Origin: Babesia bovis T2Bo
Lineage: Eukaryota; Apicomplexa; Aconoidasida; Piroplasmida; Babesiidae
Assembly (NCBI RefSeq): GCF_000165395.2
Contig: NW_026261572.1
Coordinates: forward strand, 124,001-188,000
Reading direction: 5' to 3'
DNA: 64,000 nucleotides
Position 1 is the stretch's first letter, and each line of letters starts with the position of its first letter. Under the pieces are notes generated by a model. It saw nothing but the letters and a program-made list of their open reading frames with translations, searched no databases and was not told the origin of the DNA. Below, one piece after another: positions 29,282 to 63,898 of this stretch. The translations under genes were made by a program, and so were the position numbers.

Positions 29282-31268
29282 CACTAGTGCCAAAAGGATC
29301 AATGTCAGCAACAATCATGTCCCATAGGAACACTATGTAATGATATAATCAGAAATAATGTAGAGACACTGCCAACCATTTAATCATTTCTATACATTTT
29401 ACGTTAACTTGTGGTGGGAATTTGACGTGATTAAATTTATATGAGAACCAGCTTAACGTGTGCTGTTTTTGCAGACATAGTGCCAGGATTCCTGATGGTA
29501 GATTTGCTTTCTTGGGATACAAGTTCACTGTCTGGGGCTGCAGTAGAATCTTTTTTGCCACAATGTATCAGTTGTGTTTTCAGCTATCCGTGGTCTTTTG
29601 AAAGATCGGTCGTAACTGTTTTTGTTCTCCTAGTGCTTGAAATCGTTGTCGAACCCATCGAACAACTTCGCATGATCGCCACAAATAGCTATTATGTATG
29701 TACAATAGCATCAACAACAAACGACCCAAACCTGAAAATGCGATAACAGCAGCCGTCCCATGTATATCGACAGCAGCTTCATCACGAAGAAATATAACCG
29801 TATAAATTAAAAAGCATACTGATACCAGTACCCGTAGTATGATGAAGATGATCTCACCGATTGTTAATTATCCAGACTTTTGTCTAGTAAAGTGGTCTTA
29901 TCCATAATGTTATCGGCGCCGATCTCCACTTTATCCATAAGGGCACATTCCTGAGCTTCTGCAGTTGTTGACCACAATATTACACTCGAAAACCACATCT
30001 TAGAACAGCTTCCATGAACTGTTTAAACGTCTATTCTTTTTCTCATAGCCGATTTTCCGACGAATGTCATCAGAGATTCCATCCAACCTATAACTGATCC
30101 AAAATGTCTCCGATTGTTGATTCATACGGGTTTTCATACCCTGATAAATATTCCATATCATCCAAATGACGCTTGTAGGCGTCTGCCCATACCATTTTAG
30201 CACATAAGTTGACGGTTGACAGCAGATGGAATGGCGCATCCGTTAACGATTTATCTGGTGCTGCTTTTTCAATCTGGGTGTATAGAATAGTCTATTTATA
30301 CAGCTATCAATGGTACTACTCTGATATCGGAAACTCTAGAGCTATAAAGTTATTTGCGAAACGCGTATTATCTATCGTTTATGGTTATATTAGTGGGAAT
30401 AAATGCTAACATTTGTATCACAACCTTATTATATTTAAACGCTATTAATCATATTAACGTTAAAAGCACAATGTTATTTAGTGATATCTTAATGTTCCCT
30501 ATAATTAAATTAGACAGGCCAATATAGAATTGAAGAAACATGGTCCTGATTCTATAGTATTGTTAACAAAGGTTATCCATCAAAACGTGAGGTGGTATAC
30601 AATAGTACTAAAAAATCAACGGTCCGTCGATAAAGTAAACAATGTTAGCCCCTTGTCTACATCTATGTATCAAGTAGTACACTATTTTAAATTCTGAATA
30701 ACTTAATCTCCGCTTTGTCAACCATATCGGGTTCTAATAAGATGTATCACTGGTGATTCATTTTCCATTTAACGGTATGAATGGTCAACTCCCGAAATTA
30801 TTGAAATTGTATGAATAGATAATACAGGATATGGATACAGAAAGTGGTAAATATCACCTTTTTTGCCCAAGTGGCCCCTAATAGGAATTTCCTATATTCC
30901 TGAAATTAAATGTCGGGTCATTATGATATGGCAATAGCAAAGCATAAGCACTTGAAAGAAATATGTATATTAACATATAACAACGCAGACATGCAACTAT
31001 AAGTAGTTACAAATTAGCATTTGGGAAATTGAAATAAAGCATTAATGAATATCTCATGGTGATAATCAACTACGTGATACGTGTATCTCTGTATATCAAA
31101 TTGCAATATCAAGGATGGAAGCCACTACGTCTATAAGGTAATTAAAACTACGTAGCAAAAGTTCAATTGCTTGTTTAAAATAGATTAAAGCCACAATATT
31201 GTGCGTTGTGACCTTTTTCATTTATCATCACAGCATGTATATGCTGTATTATGGCCTTTCCCATTTAA
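29282..31268. other. Gene-poor 2-kb gap separating housekeeping and secreted-family genes
   Basis: The longest gap in the window. It is AT-rich. Apart from the coding-like patch on the minus strand at 29437-30291 (listed separately), no gene, RNA or repeat is supported; 30300-31260 shows only short ORFs and poly-A/T tracts. Confidence 0.5.
29437..30291 (-). other. Unresolved coding-like patch: cryptic multi-exon gene or decayed gene
   Basis: Four neighbouring open stretches on the minus strand look protein-like but are in different frames. 30291-30088 reads QIEKAAPDKSLTDAPFHLLS onward for 67 codons. 29998-29864 starts at an ATG with a signal-peptide-like MWFSSVILWSTTAEAQ. 29867-29580 encodes hydrophobic segments (IIFIILRVLVSVCFLIYTVI and GLGRLLLMLLYIHNSYLW) and then a basic stretch. 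29583-29437 is polar (KKDSTAAPDSELVSQESKST). A splice from 29877 to 29819 (59 nt, GTCTGG donor) would join the second and third in frame, but the other junctions need poor sites. It is either a small membrane-protein gene with non-standard introns or a frameshifted remnant. Confidence 0.3.
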
Positions 31269-32165
31269 TCATACCTCAAGGACTTTAGGCGTTTTTAGTG
31301 CTTCAATGACATAATTCTTTATGTTTTTATACTTCTTTTGCCAAATTGACCTGGGATTCTGGAATATAATCGTTGGTGCATGTGGCATCCTTCCGAATTT
31401 CCTTCGCATCAAATCATGTGCCAATGATTCCGCCAATTGTTGAATTAGTGTTTTGGGCAGTGGGCCTGATTCTAAATTGCCAAGATCTTGAGCAACGTCT
31501 TCTGGCAATTCAATAGGTCTTCCACTCTTCAGACATGCTACAATATCCTTGCAATCACTGTCACTTATTGAATATTCTACAGCATCCTTCGTATCACTGT
31601 CACATGTTGAGCTTTCTACAATATCCCTGATATCACTCTCACTGGTTGGGCCTTCTACAGTACCCTTGATATCGTTGCCTTTTTTGAAGCATGCTACAAT
31701 ATTCTTGCAATCAAGTTCCCATTTTTTCTTTGGCTCATAGTTTACAATTCTTTCGACAATTGCTTTCATACGAGTTTCCACAGCTTCCATGTTTATGCTT
31801 CTATCCTCACGTGAAAGGAATTTAGAACTAGGTATTGTGCTCAATAGATGTACATGTATCTTGCCTTCATATGGAGGTTCTACAATTACTTCGTGTTTGT
31901 ATTCATAAAGACTAGCATCTGGTTGGTTGCCGTCAACAGTAGCATCGGGTTGGTTGCCGTCAACAGTAGCGTCGGGTTGGTTGCCGTCAACAGTAGCATC
32001 AGGTGAATTACCTTCATTAGTAGCATCTGGTTGATTCTCTTCAACGGTAGCATCTACTGCCATGGGATCTGTTTCGCCTTCATTGGCAACGGCATAGCTT
32101 GTCATACAAGCTGTAACGGCAAAAGCAGCCACCACAAATTTGGTTACCTTTCCAAAAGCATTCAT
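31269..32165 (-). CDS. Secreted Babesia-type protein, probable SBP2 truncated-copy family
   Basis: A single-exon gene of 298 residues with a signal peptide (MNAFGKVTKFVVAAFAVTAC, cleavage likely near AVA). It is followed by five copies of a 9-residue Asp/Pro repeat (31915-32049), then VEPPYEGK and a helical body. Residues about 180-245 carry imperfect copies of an S-x-S-D-x-[KR]-D pattern, flanked by two versions of D-C-K-[ND]-I-V-A-C. The C-terminus is NYVIEALKTPKVLEV. The N-terminus and 5' region match the genes at 58208 and 59812, on the other strand. Naming it an SBP2 truncated copy is from memory of that B. bovis family; a host-erythrocyte or spherical-body location is inferred from it. 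Confidence 0.8.
   Translation of the reverse strand: MNAFGKVTKFVVAAFAVTACMTSYAVANEGETDPMAVDATVEENQPDATNEGNSPDATVDGNQPDATVDGNQPDATVDGNQPDASLYEYKHEVIVEPPYEGKIHVHLLSTIPSSKFLSREDRSINMEAVETRMKAIVERIVNYEPKKKWELDCKNIVACFKKGNDIKGTVEGPTSESDIRDIVESSTCDSDTKDAVEYSISDSDCKDIVACLKSGRPIELPEDVAQDLGNLESGPLPKTLIQQLAESLAHDLMRRKFGRMPHAPTIIFQNPRSIWQKKYKNIKNYVIEALKTPKVLEV
31915..32049 (-). repeat. Five tandem 27-bp units within the secreted gene
   Basis: Units start at 31915, 31942, 31969, 31996 and 32023 and encode [ED]-x-[NE]-x-P-D-A-[TS] type 9-mers such as DGNQPDATV. The first three units differ at only one or two bases; the last two are more diverged, so the array appears to be growing at its C-terminal side. 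Confidence 0.9.
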
Positions 32166-32475
32166 CTTGTAATGTATCTATGATTCTATACTTTTTGTTA
32201 TAGATTCAATATAAACGGCGTCAAGTATATATTAGTAAAAGGAACTATGCGATGTAATCACTAGAGCCTAGAGTAACAAATCTCTAGGTTGGTGACTATG
32301 GTGTTGAGAACTACGTTCAGCAGTTGGATAGTTTCCAGTGATGGCACGTAGTTGTCCTATCGAAAACTATGTATGGCAGATTTGTTTTGTATCGTTATAT
32401 GGTAAATGAGGTGGCTTCCTAAAGTTATTTATAACCAGGTAGCACCGTCCCCAGATAACAGGATGCATGTGATGA
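32166..32475 (-). promoter_or_regulatory. Conserved 5' region of the secreted family (inverted, diverged copy)
   Basis: On the minus strand this stretch aligns base for base, with scattered changes, to 57900-58207 and 59504-59811. Shared blocks include CATCACATGCATCC, TTATCTGGGGACGGTGCTAC, AACTGCTGAACGTAGTTCTC, ACCATAGTCACCAACCTAGA and TTGACGCCGTTTATATTGAA just before the start. The conservation stops upstream of about 32475. It probably holds the promoter and 5' leader. Confidence 0.75.
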
Positions 32476-32554
32476 ACGGCTATATACGTGGTAATGATGT
32501 AATACGAATAACTTTTAATGATATTAGTGTTGCTAGGAAACAGAGTATCAAACG

Positions 32555-45633: not shown

Positions 45634-46446
45634 TTACTCATCATCCGCCTCCTCAGCCTCTGTCTCCAGCACAGGTGGAGATTCCACTTCGTATACCCAG
45701 TACCATTGGTGCCCAATTACTTTCACTGTCATAGAAGTTGACACGGCTTCGTCCATCATGTAAATCATGGTGTAGCACGGTACAGCCAAACCCATAATGA
45801 TGAGAGTAGGTATCCAGAAGAAGCAGAACTCCGCGGTTAAGATTAGGTTGTGGTTACCCCAAACTTTGACACGGCGCCTAGCGTAGAAAGGAATGTTCGT
45901 CTGCTCTACACCGAACAGTTCTTCCATAGGGCGCGTTTCCTTTCCAACTATCATAGTCTCCCCGTTCACGATGGTAAATTGCTGCTTAGGCACGTCGGTA
46001 TAGGCATCGAACCAATGGAAACTATCAGCCGCGTAAGAGGGACGGTAGCGTCCATCAGATTGTAGGTGGCCACGTGGGTCACCATGTTGATGACGCACGA
46101 AGTTGTACATACCAGTTGGCTTGCCAAACTCAATAGATGGTAAATCTTCCGGTTGACCCACAGCTTTAGGTAGTCCTAATCCAGGGTACTTACCCTGCTT
46201 GAATACTTTGCCATCGTCTACAATGTATGGAGGCGCCGCGGCATCCACCTCAGGCGCAGTAGATTTGGCAGTTGAGCCGTCACCTCTGGTTGGTGGTTGC
46301 CCACATAGAGTACTAGTTAAACGCCTTGTTAGATGAATCTCAGCAGGGTATTTGTAGTCTATAGTGGCATTAGAACTCCTGTAGAAGTGGCGCAAAGCTG
46401 TGCCATTGCGTAGATGAAAAGCGCTCCTAAATATACAGTAAACCAT
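45634..46446 (-). CDS. Cytochrome c oxidase subunit 2, N-terminal half (Cox2a), nuclear
   Basis: A 270-residue nuclear gene for the front half of subunit 2 of mitochondrial complex IV. In apicomplexans and some green algae cox2 is split into two nuclear genes, cox2a and cox2b. The first 60 or so residues are basic and hydroxylated (FHLRNGTALRHFYRSS), suiting a mitochondrial presequence. Near the C-terminus, HNLILTAEFCFFWIPTLIIM followed by GLAVPCYTMIYMMDE is the second transmembrane helix, then TVKVIGHQWYWVYEV is the classic W-Y-W strand. The protein then stops after an acidic tail (ETEAEEADDE), exactly where the split falls. The CuA ligands are absent, as expected, because they are on Cox2b. 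The usual first membrane helix is not evident. Confidence 0.93.
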   Translation of the reverse strand: MVYCIFRSAFHLRNGTALRHFYRSSNATIDYKYPAEIHLTRRLTSTLCGQPPTRGDGSTAKSTAPEVDAAAPPYIVDDGKVFKQGKYPGLGLPKAVGQPEDLPSIEFGKPTGMYNFVRHQHGDPRGHLQSDGRYRPSYAADSFHWFDAYTDVPKQQFTIVNGETMIVGKETRPMEELFGVEQTNIPFYARRRVKVWGNHNLILTAEFCFFWIPTLIIMGLAVPCYTMIYMMDEAVSTSMTVKVIGHQWYWVYEVESPPVLETEAEEADDE

Positions 46447-48319: not shown

Positions 48320-49220
48320 CTACACAAAGCCATGCTGTGGTTTGTTGGACTGTAAAGCCTTGCGATTCAATTTGTTGTTTTTGTCTAACAAATCCATGTC
48401 ACGGCCGCGTACAAGCGACCAGAATATGGCGCACGTTATAAAACTGCTACTGGTAAAAACACATTGTAAGGAAGTTACCTGTCCATGCACGACGTAGCCA
48501 CTGTCGATACGTATTCCGCTCTAGAGTATTTTTTACACGCCAAGGCGCCGAGGCATACGTAGAAGCCTGTTATTGTTCGACCTAATGCGCCACATAACCT
48601 ACCCCGGAGAGGCATTAAGAGAAGTGCGATACCGGATGCTACAGTCCCTATGTCATCCTTACAAAAACTAAGTATGAACCAACCAAAAACAACAAAAAGT
48701 GCCAAAGGATTAGCACCTACATATAGTGTAAAAAAATAACTACGGGATACCCTTTCTAAACACCGTTACATCGCGGTGTAATATGCCGTGAATCACTGCA
48801 TCTTGTTAAGACAATATACTATGAAATACCTCTCAAAGGGCCAACGAGAGTCGCACAGAGCGATTTGCAGCAACCGAAGATAAGTAGATATCCTGTACGG
48901 TCTAGAAGATGTACAGTGTCAACATACCGGCACACCTTGCGTTGAATTGAATTACACTCGATTCACAACGCTTGTTAATCAACCGAATACACTGCAATAA
49001 ACTAAGTTGTTATCACGAATCCGGGTAATATAGAAGGATAGCAACATACCAGTGCCAAGTGGAATACACACATCAACACACTAGCGGACCAACTTGTAGC
49101 TACTGTTACTAAGAGTAATTTATATTTCTCTGTGTTGTATGAACGCTCAGGGGTGTTCACTTTAGCCTTGGAGGCACCTGTCGATGACTCAGCGCCAGCC
49201 GCCTTCATAAAGTCAATCAT
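48320..49220 (-). CDS. Four-exon polytopic membrane protein, unknown
   Basis: Exons 49220-49050, 48991-48928, 48716-48479 and 48446-48320 join across introns of 58, 211 and 32 nt to give 199 residues. It has a polar N-terminus, then hydrophobic stretches LLLVTVATSWSASVLMCVF, ALFVVFGWFILSF, VASGIALLLMPL and TGFYVCLGALACK, then FITCAIFWSLVRGR, and a hydrophilic tail ending SNKPQHGFV. The last exon is easy to miss, since reading through its donor gives a stop two bases later (AGGTAA); splicing at GTAACT opens 42 more codons. The third acceptor could be three bases earlier. Its start ATG overlaps the stop of the preceding gene by sharing ATGA. I do not recognise the family. Confidence 0.6.
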
Positions 49221-51400
49221 GAATTGAACCTAGGGCCAAACATTGGTGGCGGAGCCTTAACCTTTGCAGCTTTAGGCACAGGTATACCACCGGGGAACAT
49301 CAAATGTTGACTGGGGTTGGACATGCCCGTAGGTTTAACCAGTAGTGTCGAGTCCGGTAGAATCTTTGGTTCGTGAATATTGCTTTGGTCAGGTATAGGC
49401 TGTGTCACAACAGGTCCAGGAGCCTTGGTATCAACGGGAGGCATTAGCGGCATCATCTTTGGAATAGGAACCAAAGGATAGTTAACGCCCTTGGGGAAGG
49501 GCATCTGCAGACCGGGAAACCCAGCTTTGCCACCTGCAAACTGCATCATCATGTCACCCCCGGGTACTATCTGAGGCGCTTTGGCAAATCGCATGTCCAA
49601 TTGTAACATAGGTAATTCACCTAGCTTGTCGAAGAAGCTACCTCCAGCCTGGTCCAACAACTTAGATGCAACAGACGAAAACTGCGATGTCTCCATAGTA
49701 GTAGCACACTTAGACAATGCACTCGCGGCACAATCCTTTTCAGCTGGTTCAGCAGGTGGAGATACACATTGTGGCGGCGTCCCACTATCAAAGTGTAAAC
49801 ATGATGCCATCTTAATCTGCTGAATACGAAAACTCTCGGGTAGCATTGCACGAATCACATCGTCCTCTAAAGCGTTGCGGTAATGGACAGCCGTAATCTT
49901 TTGCGACATGTGACGCTGATTATAGCTTATCTCGGCATACTCCTCAGCGCGCATTGCAGGGGTTACTTCTGTAAATAACGGCAATGCATTCCCGATAGTG
50001 TCACGGACAACCGGTTTCATTGGAGTACGATACCGCGACAAACACTTCTCAACATCGCTTTTATCCCGGAAATAACTTTCCAGATGCTCAATCTCACGAC
50101 GTGCAGTTATCCCCTGACCCAGAGACGTATCGGGGTTTGTTAATTCCATATACACCTCGTCCATACTGTATTTATGTGCACTCTTAGTAGCTATCCACAA
50201 TTGATTAAATATGGGAATAAACCCCTCTATCAGAGCGCTTATAGTGTCATCCTCATCAGTAATCGTGAAGTTAGTACCATAGATGCTCGCAGCTTTAGAT
50301 AACTGCTCCGATATTAACGACTTAACAGATTCACGCATATCATCCATAAATGTCGAATCTAGGTCCTTTTCCGCATCTTCCGTCTGAGTGTCATCCGCCG
50401 CTGTGTCCTCATCAGCAACGGAGGGTTCCATCTGCTCCTCCTCAAGAGGAAGAGGTGGGACGTTTAGTGGTTTTCTCATATACTCCTCCGGAGCTCGACG
50501 ATTGACTTGGCGCTGAGGTATATCAATCTGCCTGCGCATTGGCTGTTGGTTATAATTTGGAATGAGGTTCTGCTTTTGTAGGCCGTGCTTCATCATCGGT
50601 GTAGGAACCTTTACCATTGGAGGTTGCTGTTGCGGTACTGATAACCCAGGACCACGCCCTTGAGTCAGCATCTGGGATTGAATGTTCGCCTTCCTAGGAT
50701 CGTAGCCCATTGAACCGGGATGCATAGGCGCCATCTGGACGCCAACCGGGGGTCCCATCATCTGGTTATTGATATGAGGTGAAGATGTAGCACGGTTGCC
50801 GGTAACCACCATGGAATTCGAATTGTGCATGGGATCATGAGGATACATTGGCATCATACCCTTAGGTGACGCATTGTTGGCCATCATGTGACCAGGTACC
50901 AAATTAGGTGCCATGCCAATTGGCGATATATGATTACCCATGTTGCGAGGGGAAGTCGATCTACCAGGCATCATATTGACAGCGCCATGAACCATAGAAT
51001 GCTGCATCATATGCTGTTTACCCACAACATGAGGAGAACCGCCACCAGTATGGTAACCCATTATAGGAGATCGGTTAGCCATAGGATCAGCCGTCTTAAT
51101 GCGAGGCATCATTGGACGCTGACCGACCTTCCCCTTAGGCATATATCCAGGAACCGGCATACCCATCATTTTGGGCATCATACCCCTGTTATCAGGATAC
51201 GTACCCATGCAACTAGGAGGCATCTGTGGCATACCATGAGGCATCATCATAGGTGTAGGCCTCTGCGACTTTGCATATACACCCTGTTGAGGCAACACCT
51301 GCATCATGTACGTGTGCCCCTTGCCCATCATCTTAGGCGGCATTGCCTTGCGATTATAAACGCGATTATTACCTCCCCAAGAATCTCCTCGAGAATCCAT
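49217..51400 (-). CDS. Met/Pro-rich low-complexity protein, unknown
   Basis: From the first ATG (51400) the frame gives 727 residues. The N-terminal 300 are extremely rich in Met, Pro, Gly, Gln and Asn (PKMMGKGHTYMMQVLPQQG and similar). Residues about 350-550 are charged and helical, including a block of acidic residues and ISYNQRHMSQKITAVHYRNA. The C-terminal 120 residues are again Met/Pro/Gly-rich (GGKAGFPGLQMPFPKGVNYP). There is no signal peptide or known domain. The composition resembles RNA-binding or condensate-forming proteins, which is speculation. The stop TGA at 49217-49219 overlaps the start of the next gene. Confidence 0.78.
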   Translation of the reverse strand: MDSRGDSWGGNNRVYNRKAMPPKMMGKGHTYMMQVLPQQGVYAKSQRPTPMMMPHGMPQMPPSCMGTYPDNRGMMPKMMGMPVPGYMPKGKVGQRPMMPRIKTADPMANRSPIMGYHTGGGSPHVVGKQHMMQHSMVHGAVNMMPGRSTSPRNMGNHISPIGMAPNLVPGHMMANNASPKGMMPMYPHDPMHNSNSMVVTGNRATSSPHINNQMMGPPVGVQMAPMHPGSMGYDPRKANIQSQMLTQGRGPGLSVPQQQPPMVKVPTPMMKHGLQKQNLIPNYNQQPMRRQIDIPQRQVNRRAPEEYMRKPLNVPPLPLEEEQMEPSVADEDTAADDTQTEDAEKDLDSTFMDDMRESVKSLISEQLSKAASIYGTNFTITDEDDTISALIEGFIPIFNQLWIATKSAHKYSMDEVYMELTNPDTSLGQGITARREIEHLESYFRDKSDVEKCLSRYRTPMKPVVRDTIGNALPLFTEVTPAMRAEEYAEISYNQRHMSQKITAVHYRNALEDDVIRAMLPESFRIQQIKMASCLHFDSGTPPQCVSPPAEPAEKDCAASALSKCATTMETSQFSSVASKLLDQAGGSFFDKLGELPMLQLDMRFAKAPQIVPGGDMMMQFAGGKAGFPGLQMPFPKGVNYPLVPIPKMMPLMPPVDTKAPGPVVTQPIPDQSNIHEPKILPDSTLLVKPTGMSNPSQHLMFPGGIPVPKAAKVKAPPPMFGPRFNS

Positions 51401-57173: not shown

Positions 57174-57547
57174 AGAGTACCGACCTAAACGTTCAGTGTC
57201 CCAACTGTTTAGGGTACACTATAAAATGGCTGCGTATGTTTTTAATTTTTAAATAGACTATATATCTCATGATTATTTAATCGCAGTAATAAGCGTCTAC
57301 TGGGAAATATAAAGCAGCACGTAATACAATCTAACAATGCATTCAACAAGACCGATCAACTGCGAAAGAAAAATGAAGTTATAAAATACGACAGGGAGTT
57401 TACGTATGTTGTGTGAATTGTTGCTATCGACCAGTGTTTTATATGATACTTACAGATTCTATATATTCCATATGCACGTTATCATAACGAAACAATGGTA
57501 GTTTCAATAACCTATGATATACAATAAACCGTCAAAATAATCAAACA
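57174..57547. other. Intergenic, between PRMT5 and the first duplicated block
   Basis: About 375 bp, AT-rich, no ORF or RNA gene seen. Confidence 0.5.
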
Positions 57548-58374
57548 AACATTTTGCCATGCCTGCCACCACCGACAACCATGATGCTACATGGAAGGAT
57601 TGCTTACAGCACCACGTCATGACGATGGAATCATATCCGAATCGTCAACGACTTCAACGTCATAAACTAACAGTCGGATATTGTAGCACATACTTTACCG
57701 TGCTGGGTCCGCGATATAGAAAATAACTAAGCATAGAAAAATGGTTTGGCTGTTATGTACGCCACCACTGCGTTATGCGTATAATAAATGAGACCATGGA
57801 GTACAACCGGCTCGTACCCTGCACGCCTGAGCATACTATAGGCCTCTCTAGCTTGCGACTTTTGAGTGCATTATAAACGGCCGCACAAATTATCTTTAAA
57901 CGTTCATCACATGCATCCCGTTATCTGGGGACGGTGCTACGTGGTTCTAAATAACTTTAGGAATCTAATTCATTTATTACACAACAATACACAATAGTTC
58001 TGCCACACCTATTTTTCGATAGGAGAACTACGTACCATCACTGGAATCTATCCAACTGCTGAACGTAGTTCTCAACACCATAGTCACCAACCTAGAGGTT
58101 TATTACTCCAGGCTCTAGTGATCACATTGCGTCGTTTTTGGAATAAAAACTTGACGCCGTTTATATTGAATCTATAACAAAAATCTGCAGCGGAAACTCA
58201 TTACAAGATGAATGCTTTTGGAAAGGTAACCAAATTAGTCGTGGCTTCATTGACTGTTGCCACCTACGTCGCTGCCTCCAATGTTGAAGCCCCAATGAAA
58301 CCCGTTTGCTCTGCTTCCGTTCCATCCACTACTCCAGTTAAGGAGGGTGCGAAGACGGAGAGCAACTTGAAGGG
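57548..58374 (+). repeat. 827-bp direct repeat, copy 1 (promoter plus signal-peptide cassette)
   Basis: By eye this block is identical to 59152-59978, offset 1604 bp. It spans about 660 bp upstream of the gene at 58208 and its first 55 codons. Identity ends abruptly at both edges: CAAAC vs CAAAT on the left, AAGGGG vs AAGGGT on the right. Confidence 0.93.
57900..58207 (+). promoter_or_regulatory. Conserved 5' region of secreted gene, copy 1
   Basis: The same as 59504-59811 and, with changes, as 32166-32475 inverted. Shared blocks are the ones listed there. Being kept across three genes and two loci, with a sharp outer limit near the CATCACATGCATCC block, it is likely to be functional promoter and leader sequence. 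Confidence 0.7.
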
Positions 58375-58783
58375 GGCAGTAGTTGGCAATCGCGGAATTG
58401 ACAAATTAGTGGACTATGACGGACTTGTTGATCGTTACGGTAAGGTTGTTGATAGGATCGCATCATACGTTAAGGGGAAAAACTTAGGTGCGCCATATTC
58501 TGACATGGTTGATTTATTGACGAACACTGACAATATCAGATTACCACACGCGTTGGCCGTTGAACTTAGCACTTTGCCACATGGGCCAATTCCCAGCGAT
58601 TTGATTTCAAGGTTGGCTAAATTTATTGGAACCGACGTTTGCACATTATTGAATAAATCTGGCAAATACAAAGATGGCTCAAGCTGCGCATGGTATTCTC
58701 TTATGTTTTGGGATATGAAATGCAACAACATGAAATCATTTGTAAGCGAAGCATTGAAATCACCTTCAGTCCTTGAAGTTTGA
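58208..58783 (+). CDS. Secreted Babesia-type protein, probable SBP2 truncated-copy family
   Basis: A single-exon gene of 191 residues: signal peptide MNAFGKVTKLVVASLTVATY, then a short polar linker that is identical with the next gene up to SNLKGA. After that the body is unique (GKVVDRIASYVKGKNL, LPHGPIPSDLISRLAKFIG). It ends VSEALKSPSVLEV. The module and C-terminal motif match the genes at 31269 and 59812. Four cysteines lie in the mature part. Secretion is inferred from the signal peptide; function is unknown. Confidence 0.82.
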   Translation: MNAFGKVTKLVVASLTVATYVAASNVEAPMKPVCSASVPSTTPVKEGAKTESNLKGAVVGNRGIDKLVDYDGLVDRYGKVVDRIASYVKGKNLGAPYSDMVDLLTNTDNIRLPHALAVELSTLPHGPIPSDLISRLAKFIGTDVCTLLNKSGKYKDGSSCAWYSLMFWDMKCNNMKSFVSEALKSPSVLEV

Positions 58784-59151
58784 ATGAAATTTATATTAAA
58801 TGAATGTAGTTTTTAATGCGGATTTTCTGAAAATTGAAAGACAGCAAGTATTGGAAATAATATACACATTGTAACATTACATTCCACATGAATTTCGTAT
58901 GGAATCGATTTACAGCGCACCGGGATCATGTTAATGTAATATATACTACGACAATATGACGACCTATAAAAATTGGACTATGATATGGTAACAAAACGCG
59001 ATTTTCGATACCAAGTGTGTAGTCAAATATGTTGAACTTTTATATATTCAGGCAGTAACCGTTAATGTGTGGAACCAACAAAAATAGAATCGCATTGACC
59101 GCACGACAAAGCGTCGAACAAAAGCAGCCTGAGCGTCAAAATTATCAAATG
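58784..59151. other. Spacer between the two duplicated secreted genes
   Basis: About 370 bp, unrelated by eye to the sequence downstream of the second copy. No ORF or RNA gene seen. Confidence 0.5.
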
Positions 59152-59978
59152 AACATTTTGCCATGCCTGCCACCACCGACAACCATGATGCTACATGGAA
59201 GGATTGCTTACAGCACCACGTCATGACGATGGAATCATATCCGAATCGTCAACGACTTCAACGTCATAAACTAACAGTCGGATATTGTAGCACATACTTT
59301 ACCGTGCTGGGTCCGCGATATAGAAAATAACTAAGCATAGAAAAATGGTTTGGCTGTTATGTACGCCACCACTGCGTTATGCGTATAATAAATGAGACCA
59401 TGGAGTACAACCGGCTCGTACCCTGCACGCCTGAGCATACTATAGGCCTCTCTAGCTTGCGACTTTTGAGTGCATTATAAACGGCCGCACAAATTATCTT
59501 TAAACGTTCATCACATGCATCCCGTTATCTGGGGACGGTGCTACGTGGTTCTAAATAACTTTAGGAATCTAATTCATTTATTACACAACAATACACAATA
59601 GTTCTGCCACACCTATTTTTCGATAGGAGAACTACGTACCATCACTGGAATCTATCCAACTGCTGAACGTAGTTCTCAACACCATAGTCACCAACCTAGA
59701 GGTTTATTACTCCAGGCTCTAGTGATCACATTGCGTCGTTTTTGGAATAAAAACTTGACGCCGTTTATATTGAATCTATAACAAAAATCTGCAGCGGAAA
59801 CTCATTACAAGATGAATGCTTTTGGAAAGGTAACCAAATTAGTCGTGGCTTCATTGACTGTTGCCACCTACGTCGCTGCCTCCAATGTTGAAGCCCCAAT
59901 GAAACCCGTTTGCTCTGCTTCCGTTCCATCCACTACTCCAGTTAAGGAGGGTGCGAAGACGGAGAGCAACTTGAAGGG
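59152..59978 (+). repeat. 827-bp direct repeat, copy 2
   Basis: See copy 1 at 57548-58374. The near-perfect identity includes non-coding sequence, so it reflects recent duplication or gene conversion rather than protein-level selection. Confidence 0.93.
59504..59811 (+). promoter_or_regulatory. Conserved 5' region of secreted gene, copy 2
   Basis: Identical to 57900-58207; part of the direct repeat. Confidence 0.7.
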
Positions 59979-60333
59979 TGCTACAACTGATAGTCCAAAG
60001 GAAGAGGAGAAAAAAACAGAGGTGAAGGCGTCAACTGGTGGTTTCAACTGGAGGGTTAGTGACAGAATTGTATCATACTTAGGAGCATCTAAATTACCCA
60101 AGAAATTCCAAAGTGTATATGATGATTTGCACAACAATGGAGGTATAACTATTCCAGGTGATCTTATGAATAAAATCAATGGGTTGTCATCTGGTCCATT
60201 GCCAGTAGATATCTTGGAAGAACTCTCTGATAAAATAGGTAGTGCATTATCTTCCAAGTACAAAGTTAGCTCGAACGACATGAAATCCTACGTCTTCAAT
60301 GCTCTTAGGTCACCAGGCATACTAGAGGTATAA
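59812..60333 (+). CDS. Secreted Babesia-type protein, probable SBP2 truncated-copy family
   Basis: A single-exon gene of 173 residues. The first 56 residues are the same as in the gene at 58208. The body differs: a short Lys/Glu stretch, then RVSDRIVSYLGASKLPKKFQ, IPGDLMNKINGLSSGPLPVD, and the end VFNALRSPGILEV. Only one cysteine lies in the mature part, against four in its neighbour. Together with the shared 5' block this shows one front end joined to two different bodies. Confidence 0.82.
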   Translation: MNAFGKVTKLVVASLTVATYVAASNVEAPMKPVCSASVPSTTPVKEGAKTESNLKGATTDSPKEEEKKTEVKASTGGFNWRVSDRIVSYLGASKLPKKFQSVYDDLHNNGGITIPGDLMNKINGLSSGPLPVDILEELSDKIGSALSSKYKVSSNDMKSYVFNALRSPGILEV

Positions 60334-61235
60334 GATCGCATTTCGGCTGCTTTCTATTATGGTAATTGAAATCAACCTTTTACATTCATATTCCAAAAAT
60401 ATAATTAGTTATTGATTATCCAAATCAAGACATTCGAGAAACGTGCAATATATATAATTGCTATTGAAATCTACCAAAACTAACGTTACACTGGAAAACC
60501 CGTGATATAATATAATGTAGTTGCATTCATGATGGTTGTGAGATTGGAATATGATTGGTCGAGAAAAATGCATATTAATAGTTATTGCAGTATCACACGT
60601 TACGTTGTTGTATTCATAGTTTAGTTTACACTACACTGCTTACGGAGAGTTGATCTGCCGACTATCTATACGTTCCACATTGCCGACCGAAATGTTCGGA
60701 TGGCGCAATGTGTGAGTGATACCGATATGCCGAGGAAACGATAACAAAAGTATAGCATAATCAAATACTTCACATAATTCAATATCAACTTATTTGTTTC
60801 TACCAGCGCATATAATAACGCAAAATTACTACTCCCCGAAACAGAGAGAATCCATTCAATGTTGTCATTGACGTAGTAACAACACAGTATATCGCGGCTA
60901 ATATTTGAATTTAAAGCCACTTTTAAGAACATAAGATTTTTATTTTAATTCCATATGAACCTAGTGCCATCTACAATATCCAATTCTGAGGACATAGATG
61001 CCTGGGGTCTATATGCATCCTTCCAGGCGCCATATTTGCATTAAATATACGTTCCTTTGCATTTTATCGAGTGGTGGCACTTTGATAGTCCACGAGTAAA
61101 CAGTCGATAGGTATTTTATTATCAGTGCGGTAGTATCTTTTTCAAATAATTCAGGAAGCAATTCCCTGAGAACTCTATCATATGCCTTAAGAAAAATCGT
61201 CTACTTGTAAACTGTAAACACGCTCTACTGCTAAG
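60334..61235. other. Intergenic, no gene recognised
   Basis: About 900 bp, AT-rich. Its promoter part before 61236 does not resemble the conserved family block. A minus-strand ORF at 60666-60932 has no supporting feature. Confidence 0.45.
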
Positions 61236-61988
61236 ATGGCAAGGAAGATTGCTGCATTTTCTTTTTCGGTGCTGGGTAATGTGTTAAAATTACTGCTAGC
61301 TGTAACTTTGTTAACTAATGTTCTCTGTGAACATCAAGTGGCTGACAAGGTTACCGATGGTGCTCATCCTAGTTGCATGGGTCTGACGGAACCATCACCG
61401 AGTCATTCGCTTTTTGATGGGTCATACTTCACGTATTCCACACCAGGTTTTACGGATGATGTTGCTGTTTCTCAAGATGCCACAACCAATGCCGACACAC
61501 CAAATGATGTCACATCCAGTGATGCCACCGCCATTGATGACAAGAAATTTGAGTATCGAACATCTGTATATTTGGTGGAACCGCCATATCCACAGCAATA
61601 CAGTGTCCGTGAGAATAAAGATGTTGACATGGATGTTGTAGCCGACCACGTTGGCAAAGTTGTCAGGAAAATTGCCTCTTATGTTCCACAGAATCATGAG
61701 GATGCCGTATACAAGCAGCTAACTGAAAAATTCAGTCATGGTCAACCCATCCCTATACCAACGTATTTGGCATATTCTCTTGCTGGTATCTCTGATGGTA
61801 AATTGAGAGGCAACAATTTTGAAGGACTTTTAGATTGTTTAGCTGATATAATGTTGAAAAGTGATTCTGATGAAACGTCCAATCCGTTTATTATCCCAAA
61901 CTTATTCCAAAAATGGTGGAGGAACAAGCAACTGGAAAAGACGAGGAATAATGTGAAAGAATATTTGAAAAGGGCTTTATTTTCCTAA
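61236..61988 (+). CDS. Secreted protein related to the SBP2-like family
   Basis: A single-exon gene of 250 residues with a different signal peptide (MARKIAAFSFSVLGNVLKLL, cleavage probably near VLCEHQ). An Asp/Ala/Thr-rich region follows, then VEPPYPQQYSVRENKDVDMD, which aligns with VEPPYEGK and the following residues of the gene at 31269. The shared module follows (GKVVRKIASYVPQ, IPTYLAYSLAGISDGKL). The tail is NVKEYLKRALFS, without the LEV ending. The relation to the other members is therefore in the body, not in the front end. Confidence 0.8.
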   Translation: MARKIAAFSFSVLGNVLKLLLAVTLLTNVLCEHQVADKVTDGAHPSCMGLTEPSPSHSLFDGSYFTYSTPGFTDDVAVSQDATTNADTPNDVTSSDATAIDDKKFEYRTSVYLVEPPYPQQYSVRENKDVDMDVVADHVGKVVRKIASYVPQNHEDAVYKQLTEKFSHGQPIPIPTYLAYSLAGISDGKLRGNNFEGLLDCLADIMLKSDSDETSNPFIIPNLFQKWWRNKQLEKTRNNVKEYLKRALFS

Positions 61989-63202: not shown

Positions 63203-63898
63203 ATGGCCGGATCTAAGATTGCCAAACTCGCCGTAGGTGTAGCTGCTCTTGCAGGTGCCATCAGCAACGCTGTTGTCGCCGACAACCAGGGCGTCGTTGA
63301 CTTTGAGGAAATTGGTTTCATCGAGGACTTCGACTTGTCTTCCGAGGAACCCAAGGCCGCTCCCGTTGTCCCTGGTGACTACGTTTACTCCACCGAGGAG
63401 GATGGCGACGAAGTCGAGGATGAAGACATGGTTTTCCCTGAAGCTAAACGCTACCTCCGCATCAGAGACACCAAATTGCCCACTGAAGAGTCTCACCTTC
63501 CCGAAGAGATCCGTGACATGACATTCAACCATCTTCCCCGCGAATACATCCGTGACACTGGTATTGATCGCCTCAAGGCAGTCATCAGGACTATTGCTCA
63601 GTACACTCCTACCGCTGTTGAGCTTCTTCCCTACGTTGCCTACTGCAACAGTCTTAAGGAACGCGAAGACTTTGAATTCCCATCTAGCATTATCTACAGC
63701 ATGGGCAGACTCAACTCAGGCAAGATGTACACCGGTTTAGCCTTGGCCCTTGCTCGTCACATTGCTCAGAGGCTAATTGCTGAAGAATACCCCGAAAAGC
63801 CAAAGACCTTCGTTCTTAGGATGAAACGTAACGATGACCTTGCCATGCTTACCAGGTACATTACTGAAGCCATTTTGTCACTCAAGAACTTCCCATGA
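63203..63898 (+). CDS. Secreted acidic protein, divergent member of the same family
   Basis: From the ATG at 63203 it encodes 231 residues with a clear signal peptide (MAGSKIAKLAVGVAALAGAI, ending near VVA). An in-frame upstream ATG at 63137 would put 22 residues in front of this signal and is unlikely. The N-terminal third is very acidic (STEEDGDEVEDEDMVFPE). The body has RLKAVIRTIAQYTP, FPSSIIYSMGRLNSGKMYTG and ALALARHIAQRL, aligning with the shared module, and ends RYITEAILSLKNFP. Codons strongly favour C in the third position (GAC, CTC, CTT, ACC, AAC), unlike the neighbours, which suggests high expression. Confidence 0.8.
   Translation: MAGSKIAKLAVGVAALAGAISNAVVADNQGVVDFEEIGFIEDFDLSSEEPKAAPVVPGDYVYSTEEDGDEVEDEDMVFPEAKRYLRIRDTKLPTEESHLPEEIRDMTFNHLPREYIRDTGIDRLKAVIRTIAQYTPTAVELLPYVAYCNSLKEREDFEFPSSIIYSMGRLNSGKMYTGLALALARHIAQRLIAEEYPEKPKTFVLRMKRNDDLAMLTRYITEAILSLKNFP

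What the first reader, a model, noticed from the sequence alone, without database searches (positions are those of the whole stretch)
57548..59978. Identical 827-bp promoter and signal-peptide cassette in front of two different secreted proteins
57548-58374 and 59152-59978 look identical base for base, including about 660 bp of non-coding DNA and the first 55 codons, and then diverge at once. The bodies behind them share only weak similarity. This is the pattern expected if a fixed expression and export front end is moved or copied onto different bodies by gene conversion, a way to vary a secreted repertoire while keeping regulation constant.
Basis: partly seen in the sequence, partly recalled or inferred. 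Interest (0 to 1): 0.82.

Follow-up and report, generated by a model that had tools for sequence, protein, structure and literature searches.

The report
Shared gene fronts kept identical
In the cattle parasite Babesia bovis, some neighbouring genes for small secreted proteins share an identical front end (upstream DNA plus secretion signal) attached to very different bodies, most likely because the front of one gene was copied over the front of its neighbour.

Summary
In detail: 57548-58374 and 59152-59978 are identical over 827 bp (660 bp upstream DNA plus 55 codons). The bodies behind them share 35% amino-acid identity. The window is Babesia bovis T2Bo.

It is not a one-off. A second tandem pair about 57 kb away (BBOV_IV001040/BBOV_IV001030) has 1,259 identical bp before bodies 28% identical. 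A third pair on another contig has 2 differences in 1,120 bp before bodies 39% identical.

Between the two loci of this contig the same front is only about 80% identical, as diverged as the bodies, so constraint does not explain identity within pairs. Fronts and bodies reject each other's tree (AU p 3e-61 and 1e-40). A B. bovis protein from outside this assembly has the same first 56 residues on a body matching at 82 of 117.

Best explanation: repeated recent interlocus gene conversion of gene fronts, while bodies evolve independently. Unproved: DNA from isolates, long-read confirmation, promoter activity, benefit. The kind is known (chimaeric genes through 5' conversion; Babesia gene conversion); this form was not in the papers searched.

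The parts
57548..58374 (+). front block, copy 1 (gene B): 660 bp upstream DNA + codons 1-55
   Evidence: 827/827 identical to copy 2; G+C of its non-coding part 42.1% against 32.6% and 33.4% in the two spacers next to the blocks
59152..59978 (+). front block, copy 2 (gene C); inferred donor
   Evidence: C is 80.6% to gene F over 1,700 bp of front, body and 3' flank
57530..57547 (+). diverged edge 5' of copy 1 (pairs with 59134-59151, 15/18)
   Evidence: older homology just outside the identical tract
59134..59151 (+). diverged edge 5' of copy 2
58208..58783 (+). gene B, 191 aa secreted-type protein (P0004); inferred recipient of the front
59812..60333 (+). gene C, 173 aa secreted-type protein (P0001); helices predicted at 78-165, residues 12-75 low confidence
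61236..61988 (+). gene D, 250 aa distant family member (DUF1411 26.0 bits, over cut-off) with another front type
60965..61373 (+). front of gene D (271 bp upstream + about 45 codons); a 91% copy lies at C5:244872-245285(-) ahead of a different short ORF
63203..63898 (+). gene E, 231 aa, distant relative by alignment only
31269..32165 (-). gene A, 298 aa, member with short repeats; body 85% nt to gene G at C5:240292-241122
32073..32478 (-). front of gene A (-311 to about +93), 92% to the F/G front; its part 32127-32478 is 86% to the B/C front

Best explanation
The two identical blocks are the shared front (presumed promoter, 5' leader and signal peptide) of two tandem paralogues of a B. bovis secreted-protein family. 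Recent interlocus gene conversion made them identical: the front of gene C was copied over the front of gene B and stopped where recognisable homology between the bodies ends. The same kind of event acted separately on pair F/G on this contig and on pair p/q on C2, so fronts evolve in concert within a locus while bodies evolve on their own. Shown: exact identity, recurrence, between-locus divergence of the same block, opposite trees for front and body. Inferred: direction C to B (C and F are about 20% apart in front, body and 3' flank alike), the recombination route, promoter function, and any benefit (a new body automatically keeps a working expression and secretion front).
For: 827 bp with 0 differences. 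Pair F/G: 1,259 bp with 0 differences, -1165 to +93. Pair p/q on C2: 2 mismatches in -1009..+110, with homologous but diverged sequence directly upstream (44 mismatches in the 219 positions -1228..-1010). Same block between the C5 loci 79-82%; C-F front dS 0.40 and body dS 0.34, so the front is not specially constrained; B-C front dS 0 against body 1.39; F-G 0 against 1.87; p-q 0 against 2.14. AU test on C5: fronts reject the body topology p=3e-61, bodies reject the front topology p=1e-40; on C2 8.9e-7 and 2.3e-44. Shuffles reaching the observed longest run: 0 of 5000 for BC, FG and pq. Outside B. bovis protein: front 56/56, body 82/117, Fisher p=2.6e-7, whereas C-F shows no front/body difference, p=0.61. 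Non-coding front of B at 42.1% G+C against 32.6% and 33.4% in the adjoining spacers, in the direction of GC-biased conversion.
Against: No second assembly, reads or isolate DNA were available, so the exact zeros could partly be assembler consensus. F/G has no diverged homologous edge at its 5' end, so a block duplication fits it about as well. Near-identical tracts in the C2 array are not confined to fronts: a 992-bp repeat at 99.7% covers the 3' end of gene u and downstream DNA, the p/q tract reaches about 120 bp into the 3' end of the preceding genes, and identity returns at -1300..-1229. In the front data a tree grouping A with G rather than F with G is only weakly rejected (AU 0.036, KH 0.055, SH 0.48), because A shares an older front likeness with F/G (31 codons dS 0.05; A-G longest run, 4 of 5000 shuffles). 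The control pair C-F also reached a modest clustering (207 of 5000). The G+C excess is small for F/G (37.3% against 33.7%), and F's 5' flank is higher still (40.8%). Topologies for the AU tests were chosen after seeing the identities.
Confidence: 0.8

Rival explanations
1. Recent block duplication: a piece carrying front plus signal peptide was duplicated and joined to a body that had lost or never had this front (front capture), without overwriting a homologous front.
For: Clean 5' edge of the F/G block; C-F homology ends exactly where the G copy begins, at C5:242287.
Against: p/q is bounded upstream by diverged homologous sequence and B/C has an 18-bp diverged edge, as expected of overwriting. 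G's relative A carries a homologous front, so G probably had one already. The front-sharing genes keep a similar C-terminal tail, so the bodies look like old members of one family.
Confidence: 0.13
2. The bodies moved, not the fronts: a recent tandem duplication of gene C, after which one copy received a different body.
For: Would also give identical fronts and different bodies; conversion at 3' ends does occur in the C2 array.
Against: B and C 3' flanks are unrelated (29-45% in the 150-nt windows from +600 on), so the swap would have to include body and 3' flank; on C2, p's body matches s/t and q's matches r.
Confidence: 0.08
3. Assembly artefact: the two fronts differ in reality and were given one consensus, or one copy is a misjoin.
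For: The block is about the length of one Sanger read (sequencing type recalled, not checked); no reads available.
Against: Bodies and flanks are distinct and each gene has an intact frame; two separate exact pairs exist; in p/q the assembly keeps 2 differences apart; an outside protein has the same 56-residue front.
Confidence: 0.06
4. Strong purifying selection on promoter and signal peptide keeps them identical without conversion.
For: Fronts of different body types are more alike than the bodies throughout the five front-sharing genes.
Against: The same block is only about 80% identical between loci, with dS 0.40 in its coding part; 0 of 827 at 19% divergence has log10 P of -76.
Confidence: 0.02

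Closest known systems
Mammalian BEX/WEX/GASP genes (PMC1274310; abstract and the sections on chimaerism and on mechanism read)
   Same: Chimaeric genes whose 5' non-coding part and coding body have independent histories, attributed to interlocus gene conversion; converted parts are G+C richer
   Different: There the converted part is the 5' UTR; here it covers the apparent signal peptide and 660-1165 bp upstream, in tandem secreted-protein genes of a parasite
Segmental gene conversion of B. bovis ves1 genes (PMC7485966, PMC6630957; passages read)
   Same: Same species, non-reciprocal copying between paralogues
   Different: ves tracts are short (mean 109 bp in wild type, PMC7485966) and make the transcribed gene a mosaic; here tracts are 827 and 1,259 bp, sit at the 5' end and homogenise
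Babesia rap-1 tandem loci (PMC6630957, passages read)
   Same: Tandem secreted-protein genes; rare unequal recombination and gene conversion implied for B. bigemina
   Different: B. bovis rap-1 genes are reported 98-100% identical to one another, not identical in the front alone
smorf family (PMC3459096, passages read)
   Same: B. bovis family with signal peptides and variable bodies; repertoire differs between strains
   Different: smorfs lie near ves1 genes (not tested for this family); front-only identity was not in the passages read

Membership tests
Interlocus gene conversion / concerted evolution of a gene front | paralogues far more alike in one tract than in adjoining homologous sequence | tested here: met
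Interlocus gene conversion / concerted evolution of a gene front | trees of tract and remainder conflict, tract groups by locus | tested here: met
   AU tests; the A-with-G alternative in the front data is only weakly rejected (AU 0.036)
Interlocus gene conversion / concerted evolution of a gene front | diverged homologous sequence at the edges of the tract | tested here: inconclusive
   met for p/q, slight for B/C (15/18), absent at the 5' edge of F/G
Interlocus gene conversion / concerted evolution of a gene front | transfer seen between isolates or clones | not testable with these tools
   one assembly held; the only relative found outside it is a protein
ves-type segmental gene conversion | short tracts (about 100 bp) making the transcribed gene a mosaic | tested here: not met
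   tracts of 827 and 1,259 bp at the 5' end; published mean 109 bp (PMC7485966)
DUF1411 (PF07199) | profile score over the curated cut-off of 22.3 bits | tested here: not met
   B 20.8 and C 14.1 bits are below, D 26.0 is above; G 25.5 is above. B and C are relatives of members, not members by the cut-off
B. bovis exported proteins with a PEXEL-like (RxL) motif | RxL near the N terminus | tested here: not met
   none in the first 70 residues of 7 of 7 C5 members
smorf | neighbourhood of ves1 genes | not tested
   no ves1 search was run; neighbours include PRMT5 and a Sec23/Sec24-type gene by Pfam

The most novel reading that the evidence does not exclude
B. bovis maintains a 'universal front' system for secreted-protein arrays: a promoter-plus-secretion front is repeatedly copied onto neighbouring bodies, so that any new or imported body comes under the same control, and bodies behind a fixed front are exchanged between isolates.
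Probability: 0.17. Interest if true: 0.75.

Novelty: new variant of a known kind. Interest (0 to 1): 0.5.

Why it matters
It shows, in three tandem pairs on two contigs, that the upstream and secretory front of a parasite gene can have a different history from the protein it precedes. This matters for annotation and orthology calls (fronts group genes by locus, bodies by descent), for expression studies (reads or primers in the front cannot tell members apart), and for how parasites might keep fast-changing secreted proteins properly expressed. It also gives a testable contrast with ves1 conversion: homogenising at the front rather than diversifying in the body.

Tried and rejected

Papers: no paper in the library holds 'DUF1411'. 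The locus tags of B and C are not known to me; six tags guessed from position (BBOV_IV000660, 670, 680, 750, 760, and 001030 of gene G) are in no paper, and of BBOV_IV000770-810 and 001040 only 000790, named aldolase, is found. Older work on B. bovis babr gene rearrangement and on B. bigemina p58/rap-1 genes with shared 5' ends is recalled, not read; the searches for it listed titles and abstract starts only; one introduction passage places babr genes in the merozoite surface antigen family (PMC10606690).

Wanted but not possible: a count of identical-front pairs over all of C5. Only 164 kb of C5 and 70 kb of C2 were compared with themselves. In the C5 stretch all 13 repeat rows (250 bp or more, 75% or more) involve genes of this family or their flanks, and two rows (B/C, F/G) are above 99%. 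In the C2 stretch one of 28 rows is above 99%, and it is a 3'-end repeat, not a front. On rechecking, that row, the A-with-G tree and F's 5'-flank G+C were added to the evidence against, and the odds of the boldest reading were lowered from 0.20 to 0.17.

Full report
What is there. The window is part of the Babesia bovis T2Bo genome: it is G000:C5:124001-188000 of an 8.23-Mb, 8-contig assembly, and family members on the same contig are named BBOV_IV001040 and BBOV_IV001030 in public sources. The two blocks are identical over 827 bp and no further: 660 bp of upstream DNA plus 55 codons. They precede gene B (58208-58783, 191 aa) and gene C (59812-60333, 173 aa). Upstream lies a PRMT5 gene.

The family. 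A DNA search of the whole genome finds the front at five places, all on C5, including the two copies here (a lower bound by the tool's own note): genes A (window 31269-32165, minus strand), B, C, and a second tandem pair F (C5:242795-243331) and G (C5:240292-241122), both on the minus strand. D and E (61236-61988, 63203-63898) are distant relatives with other fronts. C's body resembles F's (79% nt), G's resembles A's (85% nt), and B stands apart. The five front-sharing genes keep a similar C-terminal tail. In the predicted model of C, residues 12-75 have low confidence and no assigned structure, and five helices lie at 78-165 (block means of pLDDT 79-92 between residues 81 and 170; whole-model mean 66), so in C the identical tract (codons 1-55) ends ahead of the predicted folded part.

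A second and a third case. F and G are identical for 1,259 bp (-1165 to +93), and their bodies are 28% identical at the amino-acid level. On contig C2, where the strong DUF1411 matches lie, tandem neighbours p (621840-622574) and q (623463-624221) differ at 2 sites in -1009..+110, while their bodies are 39% identical; p's body goes with s/t about 42 kb away (67-68%) and q's with r (79%). That tract is not purely a front: it reaches about 120 bp into the 3' end of the preceding gene. All 15 pairs among six C2 genes were compared. Gene u shares a 184-bp exact run (-61 to +122) with s and t before bodies 31-32% identical, a shorter case of the same kind. s and t share a 631-bp exact run (-271 to +359), but their bodies are 87% identical, so that pair is an ordinary recent duplicate.

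Why conversion rather than constraint. Between the C5 loci the same front is about 80% identical and its coding part has dS 0.40, much as the body (0.34), in C versus F. Within pairs dS of the front is 0 while body dS is 1.39, 1.87 and 2.14. Fixed-topology AU tests reject the body tree on front data and the front tree on body data on both contigs; the topologies were chosen after seeing the identities, and on C5 fronts an alternative that joins A with G instead of F with G is only weakly rejected (AU 0.036, SH 0.48), since A, F and G fronts are all close. Longest exact runs exceed all of 5000 shuffles for BC, FG and pq; the comparison pair CF reaches 207 of 5000 and AG 4 of 5000, which suggests an older or shorter event in A/G. 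The 95% upper bound on divergence of the fronts is 0.36% (B/C) and 0.24% (F/G).

Direction and limits. C and F are alike at a broadly even level from -645 through the 3' flank (80.6% over 1,700 bp; 65-91% in sliding windows), so C's front looks native and B the recipient (inferred). For F/G the direction is open: A's front is 92% to both. p/q shows diverged homologous sequence just outside the tract (44 mismatches in 219 positions), the classic sign of overwriting, although identity returns at -1300..-1229; B/C shows 18 bp of it (15/18), and F/G none at the 5' edge, so block duplication remains possible for F/G. Not every near-identical tract is a front: on C2 a 992-bp repeat at 99.7% covers the 3' end of gene u and downstream DNA, so a general recombination process that also touches 3' ends is a fair alternative to a front-directed one. 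The non-coding front of B is G+C richer than the adjoining spacers (42.1% against 32.6% and 33.4%), that of F only slightly (37.3% against 33.7%), and F's 5' flank is higher (40.8%); this is a weak hint of GC-biased conversion at most.

Other isolates. The only relative outside this assembly returned by three protein searches is S6BPW9_BABBO (B. bovis); the cluster of B's protein has a second member sequence that was not examined. The first 56 residues of S6BPW9 equal those of B and C (56/56), but its body matches C at 82/117; on the body tree its branch (0.34) is as long as F's (0.30) with weak pairing to C (60). Since C and F show no such front/body contrast (p=0.61), this is what copying of one front onto different bodies would give; but it is a protein without a known locus, so it does not prove exchange at one locus. 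Its strain is not named in the output.

Comparison with the known. The closest published pattern is the mammalian BEX/WEX/GASP cluster, described as chimaeric genes with independently evolving 5' UTR and coding parts through gene conversion (PMC1274310; abstract, and two sections). In B. bovis, segmental conversion of ves1 genes is established, with mean tracts of 109 bp in wild type (PMC7485966, passages), and conversion is implied for B. bigemina rap-1 (PMC6630957, passages). The present case differs in tract length, place and outcome. No paper in the library holds 'DUF1411'; the listings (titles and abstract starts) showed none that describes front-only identity in this family; subscription papers were not searched.

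Verdict. Recent, repeated conversion of gene fronts is well supported (0.8). The functional story of a cassette system for varying a secreted repertoire is possible but untested (0.17).

Noticed in passing
C5:244872-245285 (minus strand), relative of window 60965-61373: A 91% copy of gene D's front (upstream DNA and about 45 codons) stands ahead of a different, short open frame (71 aa in all), upstream of gene F; looks like a decayed gene or an orphan front.
   Followed up: partly
C2:676071-677795: A 574-aa gene with two DUF1411 matches whose first 111 coding bases are identical to those of genes s and t while the rest is 48-49% nt identical.
   Followed up: partly
C2:675242-676232 and 678454-679444: A 992-bp repeat at 99.7% that takes in the 3' end of gene u and downstream DNA: a near-identical tract that is not a front.
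   Followed up: no
window 29666-32478 and C5:238692-241428: Genes A and G sit in a diverged segmental duplication that continues past their 3' ends (88% over 1,977 bp).
   Followed up: no
window 31269-32165: Gene A carries NQPDATVDG-like repeats that differ in number between A and G.
   Followed up: no
window 49217-51400 (minus strand): Long open frame of 727 aa whose first half is rich in methionine and proline.
   Followed up: no
window 45634-46446 (minus strand): Open frame ending in a stretch that resembles cytochrome oxidase subunit 2 (HQWYWVYE; recalled motif), possibly a nuclear cox2 piece.
   Followed up: no
window 58208-58783: The protein database lists PF23528 (Microp_apicomplexa_15) for this protein's cluster, although the local Pfam scan did not report it; cause unknown.
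   Followed up: partly
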